64,000 nt of DNA, taken from positions 1,178,001 through 1,242,000 of the forward strand of contig JBCAML010000018.1 in NCBI GenBank assembly GCA_038503075.1. The letters are read 5' to 3'. The stretch's first letter is position 1; every line of letters starts with the position of its first letter. The translations under genes and the position numbers were made by a program. Under the pieces are notes generated by a model, which searched no databases, was not told where the DNA came from, and worked only from the letters and a program-made list of their open reading frames with translations. This stretch comes from Gyromitra esculenta. Its lineage: Eukaryota; Ascomycota; Pezizomycetes; Pezizales; Discinaceae. Below, piece by piece: positions 16,657-32,339 of the stretch.

Positions 16657-17226
16657 ATGGTTCTTTTCGAAGTCGAAAGGAAATTCATCTTCCTCCCAAA
16701 GCTTATCTCTATCTTCAGATCCAACAAAGGTCAGCCGCCATTTAGGCATCTAACCTATAAGGGAGCAACTACATTCCGCGACACCTATTACGATTCTTCC
16801 AATATCCTGTCTAGCCATGGCATCTGGATTCGAAAACGAGATAAATGCTGGGAAGCAAAGAGACTTGTGAAGGGAGATTTCGTGCAAACATCGTACGAAG
16901 AAATCACCAATTCGCCGAAAATTCGTAGTCTAGTTCATGAGCATATACCGGAGATATCTGTCAATAGCGAAAACTTTGGACTAAAGATTTTTTGCGATTT
17001 CACTACCAAGCGAGAAATTTATCTAGCTGATAAAAAGTTTTCAATTATGTTGGATGAAGCAAATTTCGGGCACATAGTCGGCGAGGTTGAGCTTCTTACA
17101 CAAGATGTGTATGCCGCGGAGTCCGATATTGATAGATTTTTTCAGAAGTACTCTTGGTTCTTCCAGAATGGGAAACCTAAAGGGAAGATAGAAGCGTATC
17201 TAGAAAAATATGGCCCTGGGGTTTGA
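16657..17226 (+). CDS. CYTH-domain triphosphatase (thiamine triphosphatase-like)
   Basis: Single-exon gene of 189 residues with a complete CYTH (triphosphate tunnel) fold. The ATG at 16657 puts the ExExK signature at its normal N-terminal place: MVLFEVERKF, with E5, E7 and K9. Other tunnel residues are present: RDTYYDS (about 49-55), WIRKRD (68-73), CWEAKRL (74-80), the basic strand DFTTKREIYLAD (about 124-135), the acidic strand IVGEVELL, and C-terminal GKPKGKIEAYLEKYG. CYTH enzymes hydrolyse thiamine triphosphate or inorganic and nucleoside triphosphates, using Mg2+ bound to the ExE glutamates. The size and the W-IRKR/CWEAKR pattern best fit the eukaryotic thiamine triphosphatase group, but substrate cannot be read from sequence. 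It lies tail to tail with the UMP/CMP kinase. A cytosolic location is expected because no targeting signal is seen. Confidence 0.87.
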   Translation: MVLFEVERKFIFLPKLISIFRSNKGQPPFRHLTYKGATTFRDTYYDSSNILSSHGIWIRKRDKCWEAKRLVKGDFVQTSYEEITNSPKIRSLVHEHIPEISVNSENFGLKIFCDFTTKREIYLADKKFSIMLDEANFGHIVGEVELLTQDVYAAESDIDRFFQKYSWFFQNGKPKGKIEAYLEKYGPGV

Positions 17227-18056
17227 AGCCATTACATAATAGATATATATATGAACTTTTCTTTTATAAAATTTCAGTGTTCTGACGGGTAATTGCATGC
17301 GTTTAACTGGGCTTGTGTAATTCTGTTAAAATTATCGCTACGAACTTGCTCTCGTTTTCTGGGAAAGAAATTCGTCTGCGAAGAGTCTAAGGTATTACAT
17401 ACTAAACATCTATTTTGTAGCATCGCGGTGGCCCTAACGGTTACCAGCACACAGCGGGTAAGACAACAGTGGTTTTGGAGCGCTTAAAGAACCAGCATCT
17501 TACCAAGATGCATATACTTCCTCTGTTTTTTTACGTTTCGAGTCAGTCTAGAAGTTGAAACACCTACCAGTCGATAGATTTTAGTATTTCAAGAAACTAA
17601 ATCGCTGAGCAACTGGTGAGACGGACAAATCGCTCATGGTAAATGTTGTGCAATTCACCACTACATGTAGTAGCAATCATGTAATAGTCTGATCAAAGGT
17701 CAAGCTCTCCAAAATTGTGCTTCGCCATTGAGGGATGTATTATCACACGTAGCTTAGAGCTTTAAGAAATATGTCCCAAAAGGGTGTATTCCCTCATCTG
17801 AGCCCGAGTTTATGGGGTTGTGGTTGCAATATCTCTTGAAAAAAATATTTCGCGCAAAGCGACAGCAAATCTATAAAGGGTAAAATAAAGCGACCTTTTT
17901 AGGTTGCCAGAAACAGGTTATGGAAACGAATTCAAAGCAGCATAGTATCATCTAGTTAATAAAACAAAGACTGCAGTGTAAGGTCATACTCAACTCTTCC
18001 TCTCCTGGAACTCTTGAGTATCACTGCTTTGAATCACCCACGGGGCTGATGTAGTT
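17227..18056. other. Intergenic between convergent CYTH and kinase genes
   Basis: About 830 bp of AT-rich DNA between two 3' ends. No gene seen. Contains a TACATGTA palindrome at 17662-17669. Confidence 0.4.
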
Positions 18057-18952
18057 CTATAGCGTGTTAACATCTATCAGCGAAAGACAGAGAAACGTAT
18101 GCTTTACCTCTACTACCCGCTTTACGTCAAAATACCCACTTTCCAACGGACCATTGCAGTCGATCTTACTTAAGTTAATGGTATTATACTTTATCGTCAA
18201 CTTTCTAGAAATTTGGTGATAATACGTACTGTAATCACTTTATCTTTCGTGCGAAAATACTCTATGACAGGCATTGTGTCGTAATTGAAACCGTACCATC
18301 TTTTTTCAAAAGCCTCCTCGTTGTCATCGATACGCTGAGAATACGTGCCTCTAATCAAGACTCGTTTCAACATCACTTCGCGAGTGCCGTCGAAATGTAA
18401 GGTAACTTTGCTTTTGCACACCTGATATATATGCTTGTTAAATAACCAGCCATTTATCAATGTAGGTACGTGTAGCTGCAGGGCACACATACCGTGTTCT
18501 CAAAGTGAAGTGCCTGATCCATATTACGTGGAAAACCATCAATTAGGAAAGTTTTAATGCCTTTCTTTATCTCAAGCAGCATTGCGTTTGTCAACACCGT
18601 CACGGCTAATTCTGCTGGCACGAGCTTTCCTTGCTGTAGCGTTTGTTCGATGAGGTCACTGTTCACGGAGCCCCGCTTATTTTTCTCTTCCCTCAAAAGA
18701 TCCCCAACGGATAGATGAGCGATATCAAATTCCTGTGCAAGCCTTTCGCACTGTGTACCTTTCCCTACACCGGGCCCCCCTATACATACGATATCAGTAT
18801 TTTCTACCTTGTCGCTATAAGGACCACGGGGACTAAGGGCCAATACCCAGGACGTTTATAACTAGGATCTCGCTATCCTTGAATAGTAGGCCTTTGGTAT
18901 GGGCCTTTTGGCATTGCTCTCTGTCATTTGAGGGTTCTTGGGGTTCTACCAT
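18057..18952 (-). CDS. UMP/CMP kinase-like nucleotide kinase (diverged)
   Basis: Adenylate-kinase-fold enzyme expected to phosphorylate UMP/CMP with ATP, supplying UDP/CDP and so CTP. Four exons fit in phase: 18847-18952, 18493-18779, 18230-18421 and 18057-18164, giving 230 residues. Introns are 67, 71 and 65 nt with donors GTATTG, GTATGT and GTACGT. The first splice rebuilds the P-loop: FKDSEILVINVLG joined to GPGVGKGTQCERL (about 24-48). Then come the NMP-binding region HLSVGDLLREE, the LIDGFPRNMDQA motif, the lid RGTYSQRIDDNEEAFEKRW (155-173) and MPVIEYF. The last splice adds ITIDCNGPLESGYFDVKRVVE, the normal C-terminal strand and helix. The lid has Q where SGR is usual, and DGTREVMLKR replaces the common CPEEVMLKR, so this looks like a diverged paralogue rather than a canonical URA6. 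The last about 15 residues are uncertain. It is divergent to viperin, 2 kb away. Confidence 0.88.
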
Positions 18953-20970
18953 ATTTATTCGCGTTTTGAAGGGATTTTATAGTTGAGATGCTTAGGACGA
19001 TATTTTCTCGAAGAGTAGCACGATACACTAGGATGAATTTCGGCTTAAACCCTATACGTAGGTGGATTTGAGAGATTCAAGGGTCAATTTTGGGTGGAAG
19101 GAGTTGATGGGTCGATGAGTTGGCAAAGGAAGCATTCCCGAAACTTAGGATGATTAATATTACAGATGCCCATAGTCACCACCCATGGCCACAAGCCGTC
19201 ACTAGCGCTATAGCATCATCATTGATAGGTCAGGTCAATTGATCTGGGGTATAAAAAGGCGCCAGAGGTTAACCCTTATTGTACCCACATACAGATGAAT
19301 CAAACGCGAGGCAAGATAACATACTTAAATTAAAAGTATAGTGAAAAATAAGATCGGAAAAGAATGACATTGATTGGGGAACAAGAGTTGTTATCACCGA
19401 TCAACCAACAAAGCAGTAACAGAGGCATGCGTTCTACTCATGTGACCGGATTGAAGACGCGTGGTTAGTGTTTCACTGAAGGGTTTAATCTCTAGGTAGT
19501 GCCCGCAATTTGTACTCTGCTATGCAGAGCATGCATATGCAATTGAATTGGGCGAATTAGATGTCCTTGTGTACCCGTGTTTACAGGGTCTAGTTTGCAT
19601 GGTGCACGTAAATCCAGATATGGTGCGGGAAGGCGTAGAGAGTGAATTAGGCAAGCTATCCACACCCTCTTCAAAAAAGATTTGTTAGCAAAGCCACAAT
19701 CAAAAAACCGCAATCTGAGGAAATGCCACTAATTTGTGGCTTTGACTACACATCCTCGCCTCTTGGTAAGCCGCTAAAAGCCTCTTTTGCTGTTTTCAGG
19801 ATTCTAATTGGTCATAATTATCTAAAGGTGTGGACAGGCTTGCCCAGCTCACCCTCTCCGCCTTCCCGCACCACAGGTAACCGAAACAGTTGATCTATGG
19901 AGATATGGACGGAGTCCAATAGCAACCAACACGCCACAATTCAAACGCCAAGGCACGAAAATACGGCATAGGAGTGTGAGCATGGGGCGGAGGAGTTATC
20001 CGTTTTATGGGGTCACCTTACGAACAATCTGAGACCTGTAACATCTTCATATCTGTGCCTCTAGTAGAGTGCACTCTCTTAGAATTAGTAATAGAATTAG
20101 GCTAGGTTTTGTGTCAATCTAGAAAGCCCTTCCTGAGGTTTGGCCACCCCGAAGAGCCTTTTCCATTGCGGCTTGCAGTCAGTATTTTATGAGCCTGAGC
20201 ATTTAGCGAAGATTGCGGGTCGCAAATATAATCTGAGAGGCCCATGTAGGGTAGACATATGTCTAATTGAGAGTGTAGGGCTAGTGATAATCTACGTTGT
20301 CCTACTGCCTTTGGCTGTAGGGCGAACCTTTGTAGGGCGACCGAACCACAGACCCAACCATATCCGCACACTTTCAGCATCTCAGAGGCTGTATCACAGC
20401 CGGGAGAGCTAGTTGCACCCTACCAAGTAAATAGTAAGCATTTTAAGTACATACCTTCGGATCCTGACCCCTCACTTGGCTATTATACCATCTCTTAAAC
20501 TTTGGTAATGGTTTTTCTAAAAAGGTGGGGGGCCTTTTTAGGACTCTATAAATCGACATCAAGCATTACCTAATCGTTATAAAGAGTTCGAATTAGGCAT
20601 AAATAGCCTAGAGAAGCTCTCTCAACCTATTATTCATATTTTATTCTATGTAACTGCCTGTATAAGACTCTAGGAACTAAAAATACCTCGATGATCGGAA
20701 TCCTGATGATGAGCGGTTACACGGTTATGCACCCCGCTCTGTTTAACGCAGTCGCAAAATATATGTTTATGTCGGTTCTTTTTGGTCGTACTAATGGATG
20801 CCACCAGTTGCACAGTTCAGAACTTGAAGAAGTAGATATTAAGACAGTATTGCCACGAATACCCTCTACCACACTTGCTGTAGAGTTTCTCTATTTTTTT
20901 AATCCAAGGTAAGTTCATTCAATTATGGGAACCTTTTTTTACGATTCTAACGCAAATATAGTTGCCTAGT
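18953..20970. other. 2-kb divergent intergenic region, kinase / viperin
   Basis: Holds the presumed promoters of the kinase (minus) and viperin (plus). No gene supported. Candidate TATA-like sequences on the viperin side are TATAAAT near 20546 and TATAAGA near 20661. A 253-bp inverted-repeat element lies in the middle (19621-19873). Confidence 0.45.
19621..19873. mobile_element. 253-bp element with about 46-bp inverted arms
   Basis: Left arm 19621-19666 (starts TGGTGCGGGAAGGCGTAGAG) and right arm 19828-19873 pair along their length with a few mismatches. Most mismatches are A on the left arm against G on the right (AGAGAGTGAATTAGG against AGAGGGTGAGCTGGG when aligned), a transition bias like that left by RIP or cytosine deamination. 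No coding content. The type is uncertain (MITE or simple foldback). It sits between the divergent kinase and viperin genes. Confidence 0.7.
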
Positions 20971-21939
20971 ATGATATTCGGATTGGTACTAGTTTTTCTC
21001 GCCCTTGCTGGGGTACTATTTATCACTCGTCGCCGTGCTTCTCGTCGTGTTGTCCCCGTTTCTGTCAATTACTTTTTCACTCGAAAATGTAATTACGAGT
21101 GCGGTTTCTGCTTTCATACGGCAAAAACTTCATACATACTGCCCATCGAAGATATAAAGCGAGGCCTTACTCTCTTAAGGGACGATGGGATGCGAAAAAT
21201 CAACTTTGCCGGTGGAGAGCCATTCCTCTATCCCAAATTAATGTCGACAATGTTGGCCTTCTGTAAAGAAGAGCTGAAACTGGAATCAGTGTCCATCATC
21301 ACCAACGGAAGTCTTGTCACAGAGAAGTTCCTGCTTGAGAGCGGAAAGCATATCGATATCCTCGGTGTCTCTTGCGACTCGTTTAACGAAGAGACCAATA
21401 TCCGCATTGGTAGAGGAACGGGCAAGCATATTGAGAAACTCAAGCTGCTGTCGGAGCTATGCAAGAAGTACAATATTAAGTTTAAACTCAACACGGTCGT
21501 CAATCGTTTCAACATCGATGAAGATATGAATGAAGCCGTCCGACAGCTCGATCCCTTCCGCTGGAAATGCTTCCAGGTCCTCATAGTCAAGGGAGAAAAC
21601 AACTCTGAGTCGACTCTTCGAGACGCTACGAGGTTCTGTGTAACTGACGAGGAATTTGACCGTTTTTGCAAACGGCATGCGGAAAATAAGTCGTTGGTGC
21701 CCGAGTCGAATAACGTCATGAAGAGTTCGTACCTCCTTCTCGATGAATATATGCGGTTTCTGGACAAAGATGCAGAGTTGACTAGTGAGTCGATATTGAA
21801 TGTTGGTGTACAAGCTGCATTGGCAGATATCAAATGGGATCAGGACACTTTCAATGAGCGGGGCGGAATATTCGATTGGACAACGAAGAAGGAGGAGGTG
21901 GGAGGTTGTGGCACTCCTAACACCAAATTGGAGTGGTAG
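20971..21939 (+). CDS. Viperin (RSAD2-like radical-SAM ddhCTP synthase)
   Basis: Single-exon protein of 322 residues. Eukaryotic viperins use S-adenosylmethionine and a [4Fe-4S] cluster to convert CTP to 3'-deoxy-3',4'-didehydro-CTP, a chain terminator of viral RNA polymerases. The ATG at 20971 starts a hydrophobic anchor (IFGLVLVFLALAGVLFI, 2-18) followed by RRRASRR, comparable to the membrane-binding N-terminus of animal viperin. The radical-SAM motif CNYECGFCFHTAKTS gives C40, C44 and C47. Then come GGEP (81-84), GVSCDSFNEETNIRIGRG (132-149), NRFNIDEDM, RWKCFQVLIVKGEN, the LVPESN segment, LLDEYMRFL and the characteristic C-terminus RGGIFDW...TKLEW ending in Trp. A short insertion (KKEEVGGCGTPN) precedes the last residues. 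Similarity to vertebrate viperin runs the full length, so the call is firm. CTP as substrate is inferred from the eukaryotic family. It is probably on ER or lipid-droplet membranes. Confidence 0.95.
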   Translation: MIFGLVLVFLALAGVLFITRRRASRRVVPVSVNYFFTRKCNYECGFCFHTAKTSYILPIEDIKRGLTLLRDDGMRKINFAGGEPFLYPKLMSTMLAFCKEELKLESVSIITNGSLVTEKFLLESGKHIDILGVSCDSFNEETNIRIGRGTGKHIEKLKLLSELCKKYNIKFKLNTVVNRFNIDEDMNEAVRQLDPFRWKCFQVLIVKGENNSESTLRDATRFCVTDEEFDRFCKRHAENKSLVPESNNVMKSSYLLLDEYMRFLDKDAELTSESILNVGVQAALADIKWDQDTFNERGGIFDWTTKKEEVGGCGTPNTKLEW

Positions 21940-27208: not shown

Positions 27209-28507
27209 CAGTGCCGTTCGCAAAGTCTTGGCACCCCTCCTCGTCAACGCCGAGGCCATACAAAATAGCCATAGAATAACATAGAAAGTAATATAAAAAA
27301 AAGAGAAAAATATATATACATGCTGACACATTGAAAAACATTTTACCACTTTGTATGGCTTCCCTCTGCAGAAATTACAGCTTCAATGCGCTCAGGCATG
27401 CTGTCTATCAAATTATTCAATACTTCTTGATCTATTGCTTCACACTCCTCCTGCATTGCTTTCCACAGCTCATCTGCACTATGAGGCCTTCTCTCTCTGT
27501 TTGTGAATCGTTCGCGAAGCCTAACTTTTAGAATATGCCAGGCATTTTCGATGGGGTTAAGGTCAGGAGAGTTGGCTGGGAGGGGCATTTTTTTGATACC
27601 ATAGGTGGTATTAACAAGGAGATTAAATTCGCCACTGTGGTAGGGTGCTTTATCTTCTACCACTCTTATGCGCTCCATAGGTTTGTCTAGCCCTTGTAGG
27701 AATGGTACTAAATGGGCTTCGTTGATTTCTCTGGCATACTGTCTGCCATTCAACCCCAATCTATCTCTTTTTGACTCCCTTTCATCTTTGGATCGGCGGC
27801 GGACTCGAACAAGAGGACTTCTTTTCCCATAGATAAAGGCTGCCCAGCAACCAACTGATATTCTTCCTGAGCGGAAGCTAGGGACAAGATTGGATTCCTT
27901 CAATTCTTCTCCTGCTTTGATCCTTACCTTCCTCCCAGGCTCATATGCGATATATTCAACCCTAGCCTCATCTAACCAAACAATTTTCCTCCATTCCTCT
28001 CTCCCCCATCTCCCCCATCTCCGGCACCACTCCAATCTCTTCTTCTTCTGCTCCTTTTGAAGCCATGGCTTTTTTCTCGGCACCACTACTTTAAATCCTA
28101 GCTCTTTTGTAGCCTTGTTGATTGTGGTACGACCAATATTCAAATCAGAGACCAATTCGGTAAGCTGATTCAAAGATGCTCGAGGATTCTCTAATGTCAC
28201 TGAATCAACCGTGTCGCGCACTTTTTTTGTGATTTTTGTTGGTCTTCCGGTCCTAGGTGCATCATGAACATGACCCCGCTCTTTGTATCTTTTGACAACA
28301 TTTCTGACAGTTGAAGGATTCAGGCCATTTTGTTTTGCAATTTTTTTGTATCCAAGTCCATAATCTGCTAGTGCAGCTATATCTCGATTGCAATCGTATC
28401 TGGGATTGAATTGCGTGTGTGGAGGGGCCATGGTAAGTAAAGTTGTCGCGGCTGTCCAAGTTGTGTTCGGTTCTGGGGAGGGTGCCAAGACTTTGCGAAC
28501 GACACTG
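27209..28507. mobile_element. Complete Tc1-family DNA transposon
   Basis: 1299-bp element with 28-bp inverted ends: 27209-27236 (CAGTGCCGTTCGCAAAGTCT...) and 28480-28507, differing at one base. It is flanked by TA on both sides (27207-27208, 28508-28509), the Tc1/mariner target-site duplication. TACATGTA lies immediately outside each end, so the insertion went into a TACATGTACATGTA-like site. It encodes one uninterrupted transposase. Near-identical ends and an intact frame indicate recent activity. Confidence 0.95.
27343..28431 (-). CDS. Tc1-type DD34E transposase
   Basis: 362 residues from the ATG at 28431. The longer open frame upstream of this ATG runs through the terminal repeat into flanking DNA and is not expected to be used. 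The N-terminal helix-turn-helix has DIAALADYGLGYKKIAKQNG and LNPSTVRNVVKRYKERG, followed by GRPTKITKK and a second helix-turn-helix region. The DDE catalytic triad is complete: IVWLDEARV, VVEDKAPYH and SPDLNPIENAWHILK, with 34 residues between the second D and the E (DD34E). It is expected to bind the element's inverted ends in the nucleus and cut and paste into TA. It is not interrupted by stops, so it could still be active and might mobilise related MITEs. Confidence 0.93.
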   Translation of the reverse strand: MAPPHTQFNPRYDCNRDIAALADYGLGYKKIAKQNGLNPSTVRNVVKRYKERGHVHDAPRTGRPTKITKKVRDTVDSVTLENPRASLNQLTELVSDLNIGRTTINKATKELGFKVVVPRKKPWLQKEQKKKRLEWCRRWGRWGREEWRKIVWLDEARVEYIAYEPGRKVRIKAGEELKESNLVPSFRSGRISVGCWAAFIYGKRSPLVRVRRRSKDERESKRDRLGLNGRQYAREINEAHLVPFLQGLDKPMERIRVVEDKAPYHSGEFNLLVNTTYGIKKMPLPANSPDLNPIENAWHILKVRLRERFTNRERRPHSADELWKAMQEECEAIDQEVLNNLIDSMPERIEAVISAEGSHTKW

Positions 28508-28935
28508 TACATGTAGTATCCCATGTTCTGGCACCGACCCGACAGCTATCATCGTGTTAGGATCCGTGCCTATGCTACCCTTGAGCCCACTACTTGTATC
28601 CATATTAGCTGCGTGTACCAGGTAAAGTGACGGAATATCCAATTTAGTGTAAGTGGAGTGCTAGCGTTTTATGACCTTATAAGAAGAAAATCCTTTGTAT
28701 GAAGTATTTCCTAGAGCTCCTCACTTTAAATATAAAAGGGAGTTTCCATCTATAACAAACATATGAACGTGGGACCATAGCTTTAAGCTTTCTTGAAAAC
28801 TCGATCATTTCCCCCAACTAGCGCCAAGCGATCGCAGACCCAAAAGGCACGTGATCAAATTTCGCATTCACCCCACCAAACCTCCCCCCACTATTCTGGC
28901 TCGAAGCTCCAATCCAGCCAAAAACCAAACTCGAT
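28508..28935. other. Intergenic, transposon to BUD32
   Basis: About 430 bp, no gene seen. Presumably contains the BUD32 promoter; C-rich pyrimidine tracts lie just before the start (28845-28900). Confidence 0.4.
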
Positions 28936-29649: not shown

Positions 29650-30353
29650 AGGAATATACGTCTTTGAGAAAAAAGTATCGCGAGATATCTCCAGTTCTGG
29701 GAAGCTCGGCCCAAACCAAGTGATTGTTACTGGACTACTGTGATTGGCTCATCCTTTTTTTTTCCCTTTAAAATCACTGGGTACGGTATAGTCGGTAGAT
29801 TTTACTTGCTCTATTCGCTGTATCATCCATATTAATAATAGTGGCTATATCTCCCAGCTACTACCTCCTTCCAGTTCTACTCTATCCAAGTAAAATACTT
29901 ATAGTTTGCAGTTAGTAATACGTTAAACACATCAAGGAGGGAAATTGCATAAGGCCACCCGTTTTCATTACAGTCGGCTTAGAATCTCCAAAAAATAGCC
30001 GTGTTGATGAAGCTTGGTTGCTCAATCTTAGAGGCCTGAATGGCGTCCTAGCTGAACGGCCTAAATCCAACCTCTTTAAATTTGGCAGGCGAGCTTCCTA
30101 CAGCACTGGATAGGGCAATCTTCAGTGCAGAGACGGGATGAAAGCGAAGTTAAGGCAGGGTAACGCATACCCAGATGATCACCTTTCTTACGTATTACTC
30201 ATCACGATATTCCTCGATCCCGTGATTCATCCTTCTCTCAACGACTCTTCATCCCTTTGCTCAGCCTTCCCTTCAGGTCTCACCACATCCTTCACGAACA
30301 CGAACATCCCCATCCACACAGCTATCTCACGAGAGGAAATCGAATTGATCATC
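29650..30353. other. Intergenic, BUD32 to ABD1
   Basis: No gene seen. The open frame of ABD1 extends upstream to an ATG at 30138, but the extra 72 residues have no family-like sequence and this part is more likely 5' UTR. Confidence 0.4.
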
Positions 30354-32339
30354 ATGTATGACTCTGCCCGCGACTGCTTCACAGAGCAACAACAGGAGCA
30401 GCATGCGGCAGAGCAGGCAGAGCAAGCTCGTCAACAGCAGCTCGCCGAAGCTGCAGCCCGCGATAATACTCCCCGCCGCCGCATAAGCACCGTTGGCGAT
30501 CTCCTGTCCCCTGTCGAAGACACCCACAATGCTCCGAAGAAAATTGCAGCTCAATCCGGGAGTCCTGATATGAGCTCAGCGACGCTGAGCCCGGACGAGA
30601 CTCCTCGCCAGAAACCAGCTACTGCGGCTGCGGCTGTTCCGTCTTCAGCTGGGAAGAAGCGAGAGCGCATCCCTTCAGATCCGCCGGAAGACCGCCGAAA
30701 ACGACACGCACCAGGGTCCCGAGGCCAAGACGGCAGAGATCGAGACCATGGCCGAGGCCATGGCCGAGACCAAGATCGCGACGACGGTCGGGATGGGAAA
30801 CGACGGAAACCTAGTGGTTCCAGTGCGTCCCCTAGCGACCGGAATATCTACGCTCCTCGCCGTCGCTCTAGATCCCCTCAATCCCAGCCCCAACGCTACC
30901 AGCGCAGGCCGGTTTCGCCAAGTGCAAGATACAGATATCGCTCTCCGCCGCCGCCACTAATCCCCAAACGAGACCCTTCGCCAACTCTCCCACCATCTGG
31001 CACGCGCAGCCGCGATGCATCACCCCCTCGTCAACGCAAGCGTCCTGGTGCTGCCTCCCGTTTTACTGAATCTGAGAAAGCTGCCATGCGCGAGAAGGCG
31101 CGCCAGGCAGAACTCGAGGCCGAACGCAAAGCAAAAGAGACGATTAGATCCCGTGGCGTTGAGGAAGTCGTCCGTGCACATTATAACGAAAAAAAGGAGC
31201 TAGGAAAAACATGGCGCAAGACTGACTCCCGTATCAAAGGACTACGTTCATTCAATAATTGGGTCAAGTCAACTATCATCCAGAAATTCTCCCCCAACGA
31301 CGGATTTGACCCTCGGAATCCACCCTTTCGCGGTAGCCCAGACTCTCGGATCCGTGTCCTTGATATGGGCTGTGGTAAGGGCGGTGACCTGTTCAAGTGG
31401 AAGAGCGCTCCTCAGGAAGTGGAGCTCTACGTCGGCGTCGACACCGCAAACGTATCGATTGACCATGCAAAAGAAAGATACGATTCTATGATTCGCGAGT
31501 CCCGTCAACGACGAGGAGGCGGCCGTGACCGCGGTGGACGGGATAAACCCGTTTTTGACGCCGAATTTCACGTCTTGGATTGTTGGTCGAATTGGATTGG
31601 TGACATTCCGATTATTAGTCACGTTGGCGCAGACCCTAATGTTGGCCCCGGCGCAGCCGGGCGCAACGCTGCGCGCTGGGGTGGCGGTGGATTTGATGTT
31701 GTCACGATGATGTTTTGTATGCATTACGCCTTTGAATCTGAGTCTCGCTGCCGAACTATGCTTCGTAACGTCGCTGGTGCATTGAAAAAAGGTGGCCGGT
31801 TCATTGGTACTATCCCTTCGAGTGATATTATCTCTGCGCGTGTACAAGGGAAGCATCTCGATGAAGAGGCGAAGCAGGAGTTGGAGAAGGGGGAGACTGG
31901 CGTACGGGAATGGGGGAATAGGATTTATAGAGTTCGGTTTGCGGAGGAGCCGCCTCGAAGTGGGACGTTTCGGCCACCGTGGGGGTGGAGGTATAGCTTC
32001 TTTTTGAAGGAAGCAGTAGAGGAGGTACCAGAATATGTGGTGCCTTGGGAAGCATTTAGGGCAATTGCTGAGGATTATAGTCTTGAACTTATCTATAAGA
32101 AGCCGTTCCATGATATTTGGAAGGAGGAGAAAGATGATAGGGACTTGAAAGTATTGAGTGAGCGCATGGGGGTAACAAATAGAGAGGGGAAGTTTATGTT
32201 AGATGACGAGGAATGGGAGGGCTGTGGTATGTTACCTCTTCATTTTAACATCCAGTGGCTTTTTCTCGTTTGGTATAGCGGACTAACGATGTTCGCTATT
32301 ATAGGTTTCTACCTGGGATTCGCATTCAGAAAAGCATAA
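30354..32339 (+). CDS. ABD1: mRNA cap guanine-N7 methyltransferase
   Basis: Nuclear enzyme that methylates N7 of the mRNA cap guanine using S-adenosylmethionine. Two exons, 30354-32226 and 32305-32339, give 635 residues. The intron (donor GTATGT, acceptor TTATAG) joins EWEGCG to FYLGFAFRKA, restoring the normal C-terminus. The start at 30354 (MYDSARDCFTE) matches the usual fungal N-terminus better than the ATG 216 bp upstream. About 290 residues are disordered and Arg/Asp/Ser/Pro-rich, including an RD repeat (GRDRDHGRGHGRDQDRDDGRD). The catalytic domain follows: FNNWVKSTIIQKF, VLDMGCGKGGDLFKW (about 334-348, the AdoMet-binding loop), DVVTMMFCMHYAFES (about 448-462), GGRFIGTIPSSDII and RYSFFLKEAVEEVPEYVVPW. 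All core motifs are intact. Confidence 0.93.
   Translation: MYDSARDCFTEQQQEQHAAEQAEQARQQQLAEAAARDNTPRRRISTVGDLLSPVEDTHNAPKKIAAQSGSPDMSSATLSPDETPRQKPATAAAAVPSSAGKKRERIPSDPPEDRRKRHAPGSRGQDGRDRDHGRGHGRDQDRDDGRDGKRRKPSGSSASPSDRNIYAPRRRSRSPQSQPQRYQRRPVSPSARYRYRSPPPPLIPKRDPSPTLPPSGTRSRDASPPRQRKRPGAASRFTESEKAAMREKARQAELEAERKAKETIRSRGVEEVVRAHYNEKKELGKTWRKTDSRIKGLRSFNNWVKSTIIQKFSPNDGFDPRNPPFRGSPDSRIRVLDMGCGKGGDLFKWKSAPQEVELYVGVDTANVSIDHAKERYDSMIRESRQRRGGGRDRGGRDKPVFDAEFHVLDCWSNWIGDIPIISHVGADPNVGPGAAGRNAARWGGGGFDVVTMMFCMHYAFESESRCRTMLRNVAGALKKGGRFIGTIPSSDIISARVQGKHLDEEAKQELEKGETGVREWGNRIYRVRFAEEPPRSGTFRPPWGWRYSFFLKEAVEEVPEYVVPWEAFRAIAEDYSLELIYKKPFHDIWKEEKDDRDLKVLSERMGVTNREGKFMLDDEEWEGCGMLPLHFNIQWLFLVWYSGLTMFAIIGFYLGFAFRKA

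What the first reader, a model, noticed from the sequence alone, without database searches (positions are those of the whole stretch)
16657..21939. Fungal viperin next to a UMP/CMP kinase: an RSAD2-CMPK2-like antiviral nucleotide locus
The sequence shows a full-length viperin (CxxxCxxC at C40/C44/C47, C-terminal Trp) and, 2 kb away and divergent, a four-exon UMP/CMP kinase-fold gene. In vertebrates RSAD2 (viperin) and CMPK2 are neighbours and induced together, CMPK2 supplying CTP for ddhCTP; nucleotide-kinase genes also neighbour some prokaryotic viperins. Seeing the pairing in a fungus, with the kinase diverged from canonical URA6, suggests a dedicated pathway making chain-terminating ddhCTP against RNA mycoviruses. 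The CYTH triphosphatase tail to tail with the kinase could be a third member (for example clearing modified triphosphates), but that is more speculative.
Basis: partly seen in the sequence, partly recalled or inferred. Interest (0 to 1): 0.88.

Follow-up and report, generated by a model that had tools for sequence, protein, structure and literature searches.

The report
Fungal viperin with kinase and triphosphatase
A fungal gene for viperin, an enzyme known from antiviral defence, sits beside a specialised nucleotide kinase and a triphosphate-cutting enzyme, and the triphosphate-cutting partner recurs on the same contig as viperin in several distantly related fungi, which suggests a dedicated nucleotide pathway.

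Summary
The three genes are real: a CYTH/thiamine-triphosphatase-like gene (16657-17226 +), a four-exon URA6-type kinase (18952-18057 -) and a single-exon viperin (20971-21939 +), in a 47 Mb Pezizales-like genome. The comparison with RSAD2-CMPK2 holds as analogy, not homology: the kinase matches the adenylate-kinase family and no thymidylate-kinase model (CMPK2's family is recalled). It is not the housekeeping copy: a canonical URA6 lies on another contig, and the kinase belongs to a separate paralogue clade (grouping with Pezizales URA6 rejected, p-AU 0.002). In Wilcoxina mikolae viperin, CYTH and a kinase of this clade share one contig length, 332 kb. The commonest families beside prokaryotic viperins are thymidylate and deoxynucleoside kinases; CYTH is not among the 25 listed. 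Best reading: a fungal viperin module in which the kinase feeds, and the CYTH enzyme clears, modified nucleotides.

The parts
16657..17226 (+). CYTH (triphosphate tunnel metalloenzyme) gene, 189 aa, thiamine-triphosphatase-like, ExExK at E5/E7/K9
   Evidence: (PF01928 E 3e-4, 21.1 bits, under the 23.2 cut-off); the other CYTH found in the genome has lost ExExK
18057..18952 (-). URA6-type nucleoside monophosphate kinase, 230 aa, exons 18952-18847, 18779-18493, 18421-18230, 18164-18057; member of a separate paralogue clade
   Evidence: The 3' end is the least certain part (an alternative 34-nt intron would give another C-terminus)
20971..21939 (+). Viperin (radical-SAM nucleotide dehydratase), 322 aa, N-terminal hydrophobic stretch, CxxxCxxC, C-terminal Trp
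19621..19873 (.). MITE-like insertion with 36-nt terminal inverted repeats in the kinase-viperin intergenic space; not part of the module, but it widens the gap
   Evidence: 29 match rows over the genome, from 17 candidate places

Best explanation
A fungal viperin module. Viperin (shown by sequence) makes 3'-deoxy-3',4'-didehydro nucleotides (ddhNTPs; known for a fungal homologue from the literature, inferred here). The linked URA6-type kinase phosphorylates pyrimidine monophosphates, so feeding CTP/UTP to viperin or returning ddhNMPs to the pool (inferred). The linked CYTH enzyme, with the triphosphate-tunnel residues that I checked kept, hydrolyses triphosphates; its most likely substrate in this setting is the ddhNTP product, so that it protects the host's own polymerases or ends the response (inferred). 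The viperin-CYTH pair recurs in three classes of Pezizomycotina (linkage from contig lengths and locus tags); the kinase is an additional partner, seen so far in two genomes.
For: The viperin and CYTH lists share 14 exact contig lengths against about 0.3 expected (12 longer than 5 kb against about 0.1). Neighbouring locus tags in Botryotinia calthae, Scytalidium lignicola and Claussenomyces; two numbers apart in Trichoderma viride. In Lachnellula suecica one predicted protein carries viperin followed by this CYTH. Linked CYTHs are spread over the CYTH tree. The kinase clade is separate from the canonical URA6 rows (100/98; p-AU 0.002 against grouping with a set of Pezizales-like URA6). Viperin, CYTH and kinase of Wilcoxina mikolae all have longest contig 332,409. 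CYTH residues at 14 sites are kept in 13-15 of 15 linked proteins, the misses being gaps in two fragments and one Tyr for Trp57. Viperin of Thielavia terrestris dehydrates CTP and UTP (PMC9642334, passages).
Against: No expression, product or substrate data. Trp57, equivalent to the thiamine-stacking Trp53 that gives human ThTPase its high specificity (PMC8615392, passages), is conserved, so plain thiamine triphosphatase activity is possible. The E. coli CYTH protein ygiF did not hydrolyse ATP, ITP or GTP (PMC3440374, passages), so nucleotide triphosphates are not a general CYTH substrate. In the lists the kinase clade shares a viperin contig length only in W. mikolae, at unknown distance; the contig lengths of the Maublancomyces gigas, Lasallia pustulata and Geoglossum umbratile members are in neither the viperin nor the CYTH list. 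One review argues that viperin should not be equated with antiviral function (PMC9642334, part 1 of the main text).
Confidence: 0.45

Rival explanations
1. The CYTH protein is an ordinary fungal thiamine triphosphatase or tripolyphosphatase and stays near viperin only by inherited gene order.
For: Trp57, Tyr44 and Lys68 match, by my reading of the alignment, the human ThTPase residues Trp53, Tyr39 and Lys65; the solved relatives are ThTPases; ygiF does not cut ATP, ITP or GTP (PMC3440374, passages).
Against: Gene order differs between lineages (CYTH-kinase-viperin here; viperin then CYTH in one predicted protein in Lachnellula; one number between them in Trichoderma), yet closeness is kept. 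In the kinase list, used as a rough comparison, 119 of 120 entries share no contig length with the viperin list.
Confidence: 0.28
2. The CYTH enzyme acts on RNA 5'-triphosphates (for example of uncapped mycoviral RNA), a second antiviral arm beside ddhNTP.
For: The capping RNA triphosphatases of fungi belong to the same tunnel superfamily (PMC8615392, passages); this genome has a separate PF02940 gene on C7, so the CYTH is free for another role.
Against: Its solved relatives by sequence are small-molecule triphosphatases, not Cet1-type enzymes.
Confidence: 0.12
3. Kinase proximity is lineage-specific and not functional: an old URA6 paralogue that happens to lie at the viperin locus in some Pezizales.
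For: Linkage seen in two genomes only; clade members in M. gigas, Lasallia pustulata and Geoglossum umbratile are on contig lengths not found in the viperin or CYTH lists.
Against: Window and W. mikolae kinases lie in different sub-branches of the clade, so the linkage is older than their split or arose twice; the lists are cut at 120, so absence from them is weak.
Confidence: 0.3
4. The locus is homologous to the vertebrate RSAD2-CMPK2 pair.
For: Same logic of viperin divergent from a pyrimidine nucleotide kinase (PMC10058120, passages).
Against: The window kinase exons match the ADK family and no thymidylate-kinase model at E 0.001; the genome's PF02223 matches are both on C5. Many URA6 relatives do carry a precomputed PF02223 label beside PF00406, so the two families are not far apart.
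Confidence: 0.02

Closest known systems
Vertebrate RSAD2-CMPK2 locus
   Same: [quoted passage not shown] CMPK2 raises ddhCTP (PMC10058120, passages)
   Different: CMPK2 is of another kinase family (recalled: thymidylate-kinase-like); I recall no CYTH partner there
Prokaryotic viperins with kinases (PADLOC pVip, 'associated with kinases' and 'viperin-kinase fusion')
   Same: Viperin with an adjacent nucleotide kinase (PMC11249213 states that 15% of bacterial viperin genes lie next to a CMPK2-like kinase gene, passages)
   Different: Commonest neighbour families are Thymidylate_kin (11) and dNK (9) among 116 neighbour ORFs; no CYTH or ADK in the 25 of 94 families listed; one weak URA6-profile match in 500 flanking ORFs
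Animal thiamine triphosphatase (THTPA, CYTH superfamily)
   Same: ExExK, tunnel residues, Trp/Tyr/Lys of the active site
   Different: Low overall similarity; the gene is linked to viperin
Plant TTM1/TTM2 (CYTH plus uridine-kinase domain)
   Same: CYTH joined with a uridine-kinase domain; TTM1 is linked to pathogen resistance (PMC8615392, passages)
   Different: One protein with both domains, a different kinase (recalled), prefers pyrophosphate, no viperin

Membership tests
Viperin (SAND) | Whole-length match to the viperin profile | tested here: met
   NF038283 260 bits, cut-off 180; TIGR04278 385.9 bits, under its cut-off of 450
Viperin (SAND) | CxxxCxxC cluster motif and C-terminal Trp | tested here: met
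   C40/C44/C47 and terminal KLEW read; the cysteines are invariant in 21 aligned fungal viperins
Viperin (SAND) | Makes ddhNTP from NTP and SAM | not testable with these tools
   Known for a fungal homologue (PMC9642334, passages)
UMP/CMP kinase (URA6) | P-loop, DGFPR, LID arginines, DD | tested here: met
   Invariant columns in the 10-sequence alignment
UMP/CMP kinase (URA6) | Score above the curated UMP_CMP_kin_fam cut-off (207.6) | tested here: not met
   TIGR01359 is the best model but at 181.4 bits; three other clade members score 153.4-184.8. Filed as URA6-type paralogue, not as URA6
CMPK2 | Thymidylate-kinase-family domain (PF02223) | tested here: not met
   Window exons match PF00406 (94.3 and 25.9 bits) and not PF02223
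CYTH / thiamine triphosphatase | ExExK and tunnel residues | tested here: met
   alignment to 3tvl
CYTH / thiamine triphosphatase | Pfam CYTH gathering score 23.2 | tested here: not met
   21.1 bits; many relatives carry PF01928, others carry no label
CYTH / thiamine triphosphatase | Hydrolyses thiamine triphosphate | not testable with these tools
   Substrate unknown
RSAD2-CMPK2-like co-regulated pair | Co-induction by virus | not testable with these tools
   No expression data at hand

The most novel reading that the evidence does not exclude
Ascomycete viperin is part of a conserved cassette with a built-in off switch: a dedicated CYTH triphosphatase that destroys ddhNTPs, and in some lineages a dedicated URA6-derived kinase that feeds the reaction. 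The papers that my searches listed did not show, in titles, abstract starts or the passages read, a viperin system with a product-clearing partner.
Probability: 0.32. Interest if true: 0.85.

Novelty: new variant of a known kind. Interest (0 to 1): 0.72.

Why it matters
What viperin does in fungi is open: the papers read give in vitro activity only. A triphosphatase partner kept across classes points to nucleotide chemistry as the selected function, raises the question of how a cell removes chain-terminating ddhNTPs, and gives a small gene set that can be tested by deletion and by assay. It also suggests that viperins recruited nucleotide kinases more than once from different families (thymidylate/deoxynucleoside kinase in prokaryotes, CMPK2 in vertebrates, a URA6 paralogue in fungi).

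Tried and rejected
Homology of the kinase to CMPK2: rejected by family assignment. Recent duplication of the genome's own URA6: rejected by an AU test of eight rows held together (the tool warns that the test shares the model's pull between long branches and presumes a group named beforehand); the clade holds when P0133/P0214 or P0124/P0125 are dropped. Kinase as the only URA6: rejected. CYTH as capping RNA triphosphatase: a separate PF02940 gene exists. The 1703-base shared contig (P0094/P0268) was dropped from my count: short, and its viperin looks Orbiliomycete-like while its CYTH looks Leotiomycete-like to me, so it may be a coincidence like the 1535-base match between CYTH and kinase lists, whose sources differ. 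Scans of viral contigs for viperin and CYTH gave no relative; the first scan of prokaryotic genomes gave none, I think because the patterns were too fungal, the second worked. A fungal CYTH profile on 500 prokaryotic flanking ORFs gave no match at E 1, though the profile may be too narrow. Literature: viperin with CYTH listed one paper, on Epstein-Barr virus; viperin, triphosphatase and fungi listed four, none on this subject by title and abstract start; searches listed nothing on a fungal viperin gene cluster by title or abstract start (listings cut, e.g. 10 of 28 and 15 of 45). The library lacks most subscription papers, and the main paper on prokaryotic viperins is not held.

Limits of the linkage count: the best 120 of 2185 viperins, 120 of 207 CYTHs and 120 of 2679 kinases are listed, each with the length of its longest contig only; I never saw the fungal contigs themselves, so 'same contig' is inferred from identical length, same sources and, where given, same species. 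The kinase list as comparison is imperfect because it covers all fungi. The own URA6 in the trees is one open frame without its last exon.

Full report
What is there. The window lies on contig C18 of a 47.1 Mb, 23-contig genome. Three genes lie between 16657 and 21939: CYTH (+), kinase (-) and viperin (+). Viperin runs from 20971 to 21939, 322 aa, one match in the genome. Among the ten window ORFs that I scanned with Pfam, the nearest named ones are CDC45 on the left and CDT1 on the right, ordinary replication genes.

The kinase. I rebuilt the gene as four exons with GT-AG introns of 67, 71 and 65 nt. The first intron cuts the P-loop strand, and its removal gives VLGGPGVGKGT, as in Maublancomyces gigas P0124. 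Uridylate kinase 1uky is the closest solved relative. The genome search gave six ADK-family matches, which I read as four genes: a URA6-type one on C22, this one, and one each on C8 and C16 with DGFPRT..Q, the adenylate-kinase type (type recalled). The window kinase is 47% identical to the C22 frame, which is 79% identical to the Rhizina kinase. In a tree of 116 rows (114 of the 120 listed hits, six two-domain proteins left out, plus the two own kinases) the window kinase, P0124 (M. gigas), P0125 (unnamed) and P0185 (W. mikolae) group together (98/84), joined by P0133 (Lasallia pustulata, Lecanoromycetes) and P0214 (Geoglossum umbratile, Geoglossomycetes) at 100/98, apart from the other 110 rows. 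The rows are long-branched; the clade stays when P0133/P0214 or P0124/P0125 are left out, and holding the window kinase together with seven Pezizales-like URA6 rows is rejected, p-AU 0.002. So it looks like an old, fast-evolving paralogue with its catalytic residues kept, not a spare housekeeping copy.

The CYTH gene. It is a thiamine-triphosphatase-like member, just under the Pfam cut-off. The other CYTH found in the genome, on C4, has lost the ExExK motif, the Trp and one tunnel glutamate, and the capping RNA triphosphatase gene is elsewhere, on C7. In 15 viperin-linked CYTHs, window and Lachnellula included, the 14 sites checked are kept apart from gaps in two fragments and one Tyr in place of Trp57; the same holds almost throughout the 107 other listed CYTHs, so conservation does not by itself mark the linked ones. 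The residues that the review PMC8615392 names for catalysis and thiamine stacking in human ThTPase (Tyr39, Lys65, Trp53; passages) have counterparts by my reading of the alignment.

Recurrence. The protein search tool gives no gene neighbourhood, but it gives the length of the longest contig for each hit. The 120 listed viperins (of 2185) and 120 listed CYTHs (of 207) share 14 contig lengths; lengths that differ by 1-10 bases give an expectation of 0.3 (12 against 0.1 for contigs over 5 kb). The 14 pairs agree in sources and, where named, in species. I drop the 1703-base one and count 13: Wilcoxina mikolae (Pezizomycetes), Botryotinia calthae, Mollisia scopiformis, Scytalidium lignicola and Claussenomyces (Leotiomycetes), Trichoderma viride (Sordariomycetes) (classes), and seven unnamed contigs of 4.8 to 52 kb. 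Five of the unnamed contigs are shorter than 9.4 kb, so both genes lie within that span. Locus tags are next to each other in Scytalidium (g5285/g5286) and Claussenomyces (006203/006204), and in B. calthae if its tags run in tens (g00050/g00040); they are two apart in T. viride (006841/006843). Lachnellula suecica P0030 (Leotiomycetes), not among the 13, carries viperin and this CYTH in one predicted protein, probably two merged neighbouring genes. Podospora tags 703060 (viperin, one species) and 703040 (CYTH, another species) fit as well. On a quick CYTH tree without bootstrap, the label 'linked' (16 rows, the 1703-base one included) is not clustered: 15 changes against 15.4 in shuffles. So the closeness is old or was regained many times. 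How far apart the three are in W. mikolae I cannot say.

Prokaryotes. A scan of GTDB genomes gave 122 viperin relatives, 80 kept. Of 500 flanking ORFs of 90 aa or more I took the nearest on each side if within 500 bases and at most 560 aa: 116 ORFs from 76 of the 80 loci. Pfam finds Thymidylate_kin in 11 and dNK in 9; neither CYTH nor ADK is among the 25 of 94 families listed, the last of which have two members, so one or two such neighbours could be hidden. A fungal URA6 profile hits one of 500 ORFs, weakly. PADLOC has models for viperins with kinases and for fusions. So a kinase partner is a known theme, a URA6-type kinase appears to be a fungal version of it, and I did not see a CYTH partner outside fungi.

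How it most likely works. Shown: the genes, their conserved active-site residues, and recurring linkage as far as contig lengths and tags show it. Known from others: viperin of Thielavia terrestris dehydrates CTP and UTP (PMC9642334, passages; part 1 of the main text); CMPK2 raises ddhCTP in pig cells (PMC10058120, passages). Inferred: the kinase raises the pyrimidine nucleotide supply of viperin, and the CYTH enzyme removes ddhNTP. The second step rests only on the linkage and on the general triphosphatase chemistry of CYTH enzymes. Against it stand the conserved stacking Trp, which leaves thiamine triphosphate open as substrate, and the report that the E. coli CYTH protein ygiF does not cut ATP, ITP or GTP (PMC3440374, passages). 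A role against mycoviruses is a guess in all readings.

Verdict. A specialist would, I think, be surprised by a triphosphatase that travels with fungal viperin, and it can be tested at once on public genomes.

Noticed in passing
window 19621-19873: MITE-like element, about 250 bases with 36-nt inverted ends, in the kinase-viperin intergenic space; similar copies on many contigs of the genome.
   Followed up: partly
window 20691-20970: An upstream frame ends in a GTAAGT donor; splicing to the AG just before the viperin ATG keeps frame, so a 5' intron or a 73-residue N-terminal extension is conceivable; close relatives start at the same Met.
   Followed up: partly
G000:C4:2001946-2002152 (L011): Second CYTH gene that has lost ExExK, the Trp and one tunnel glutamate; its function is unclear.
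   Followed up: partly
L029:5387-5950: Kordia: a 188-aa ORF 51 bases from the viperin match hits a fungal URA6 profile weakly (E 2e-4), the only such neighbour seen.
   Followed up: no
L030, L053, L070: Prokaryotic viperin ORFs of 1353, 460 and 466 aa, longer than usual; possible fusions.
   Followed up: no
window 27346-28545 and 30114-32336: A Tc1/Tc3-type transposase and an mRNA cap guanine-N7 methyltransferase gene lie downstream.
   Followed up: no
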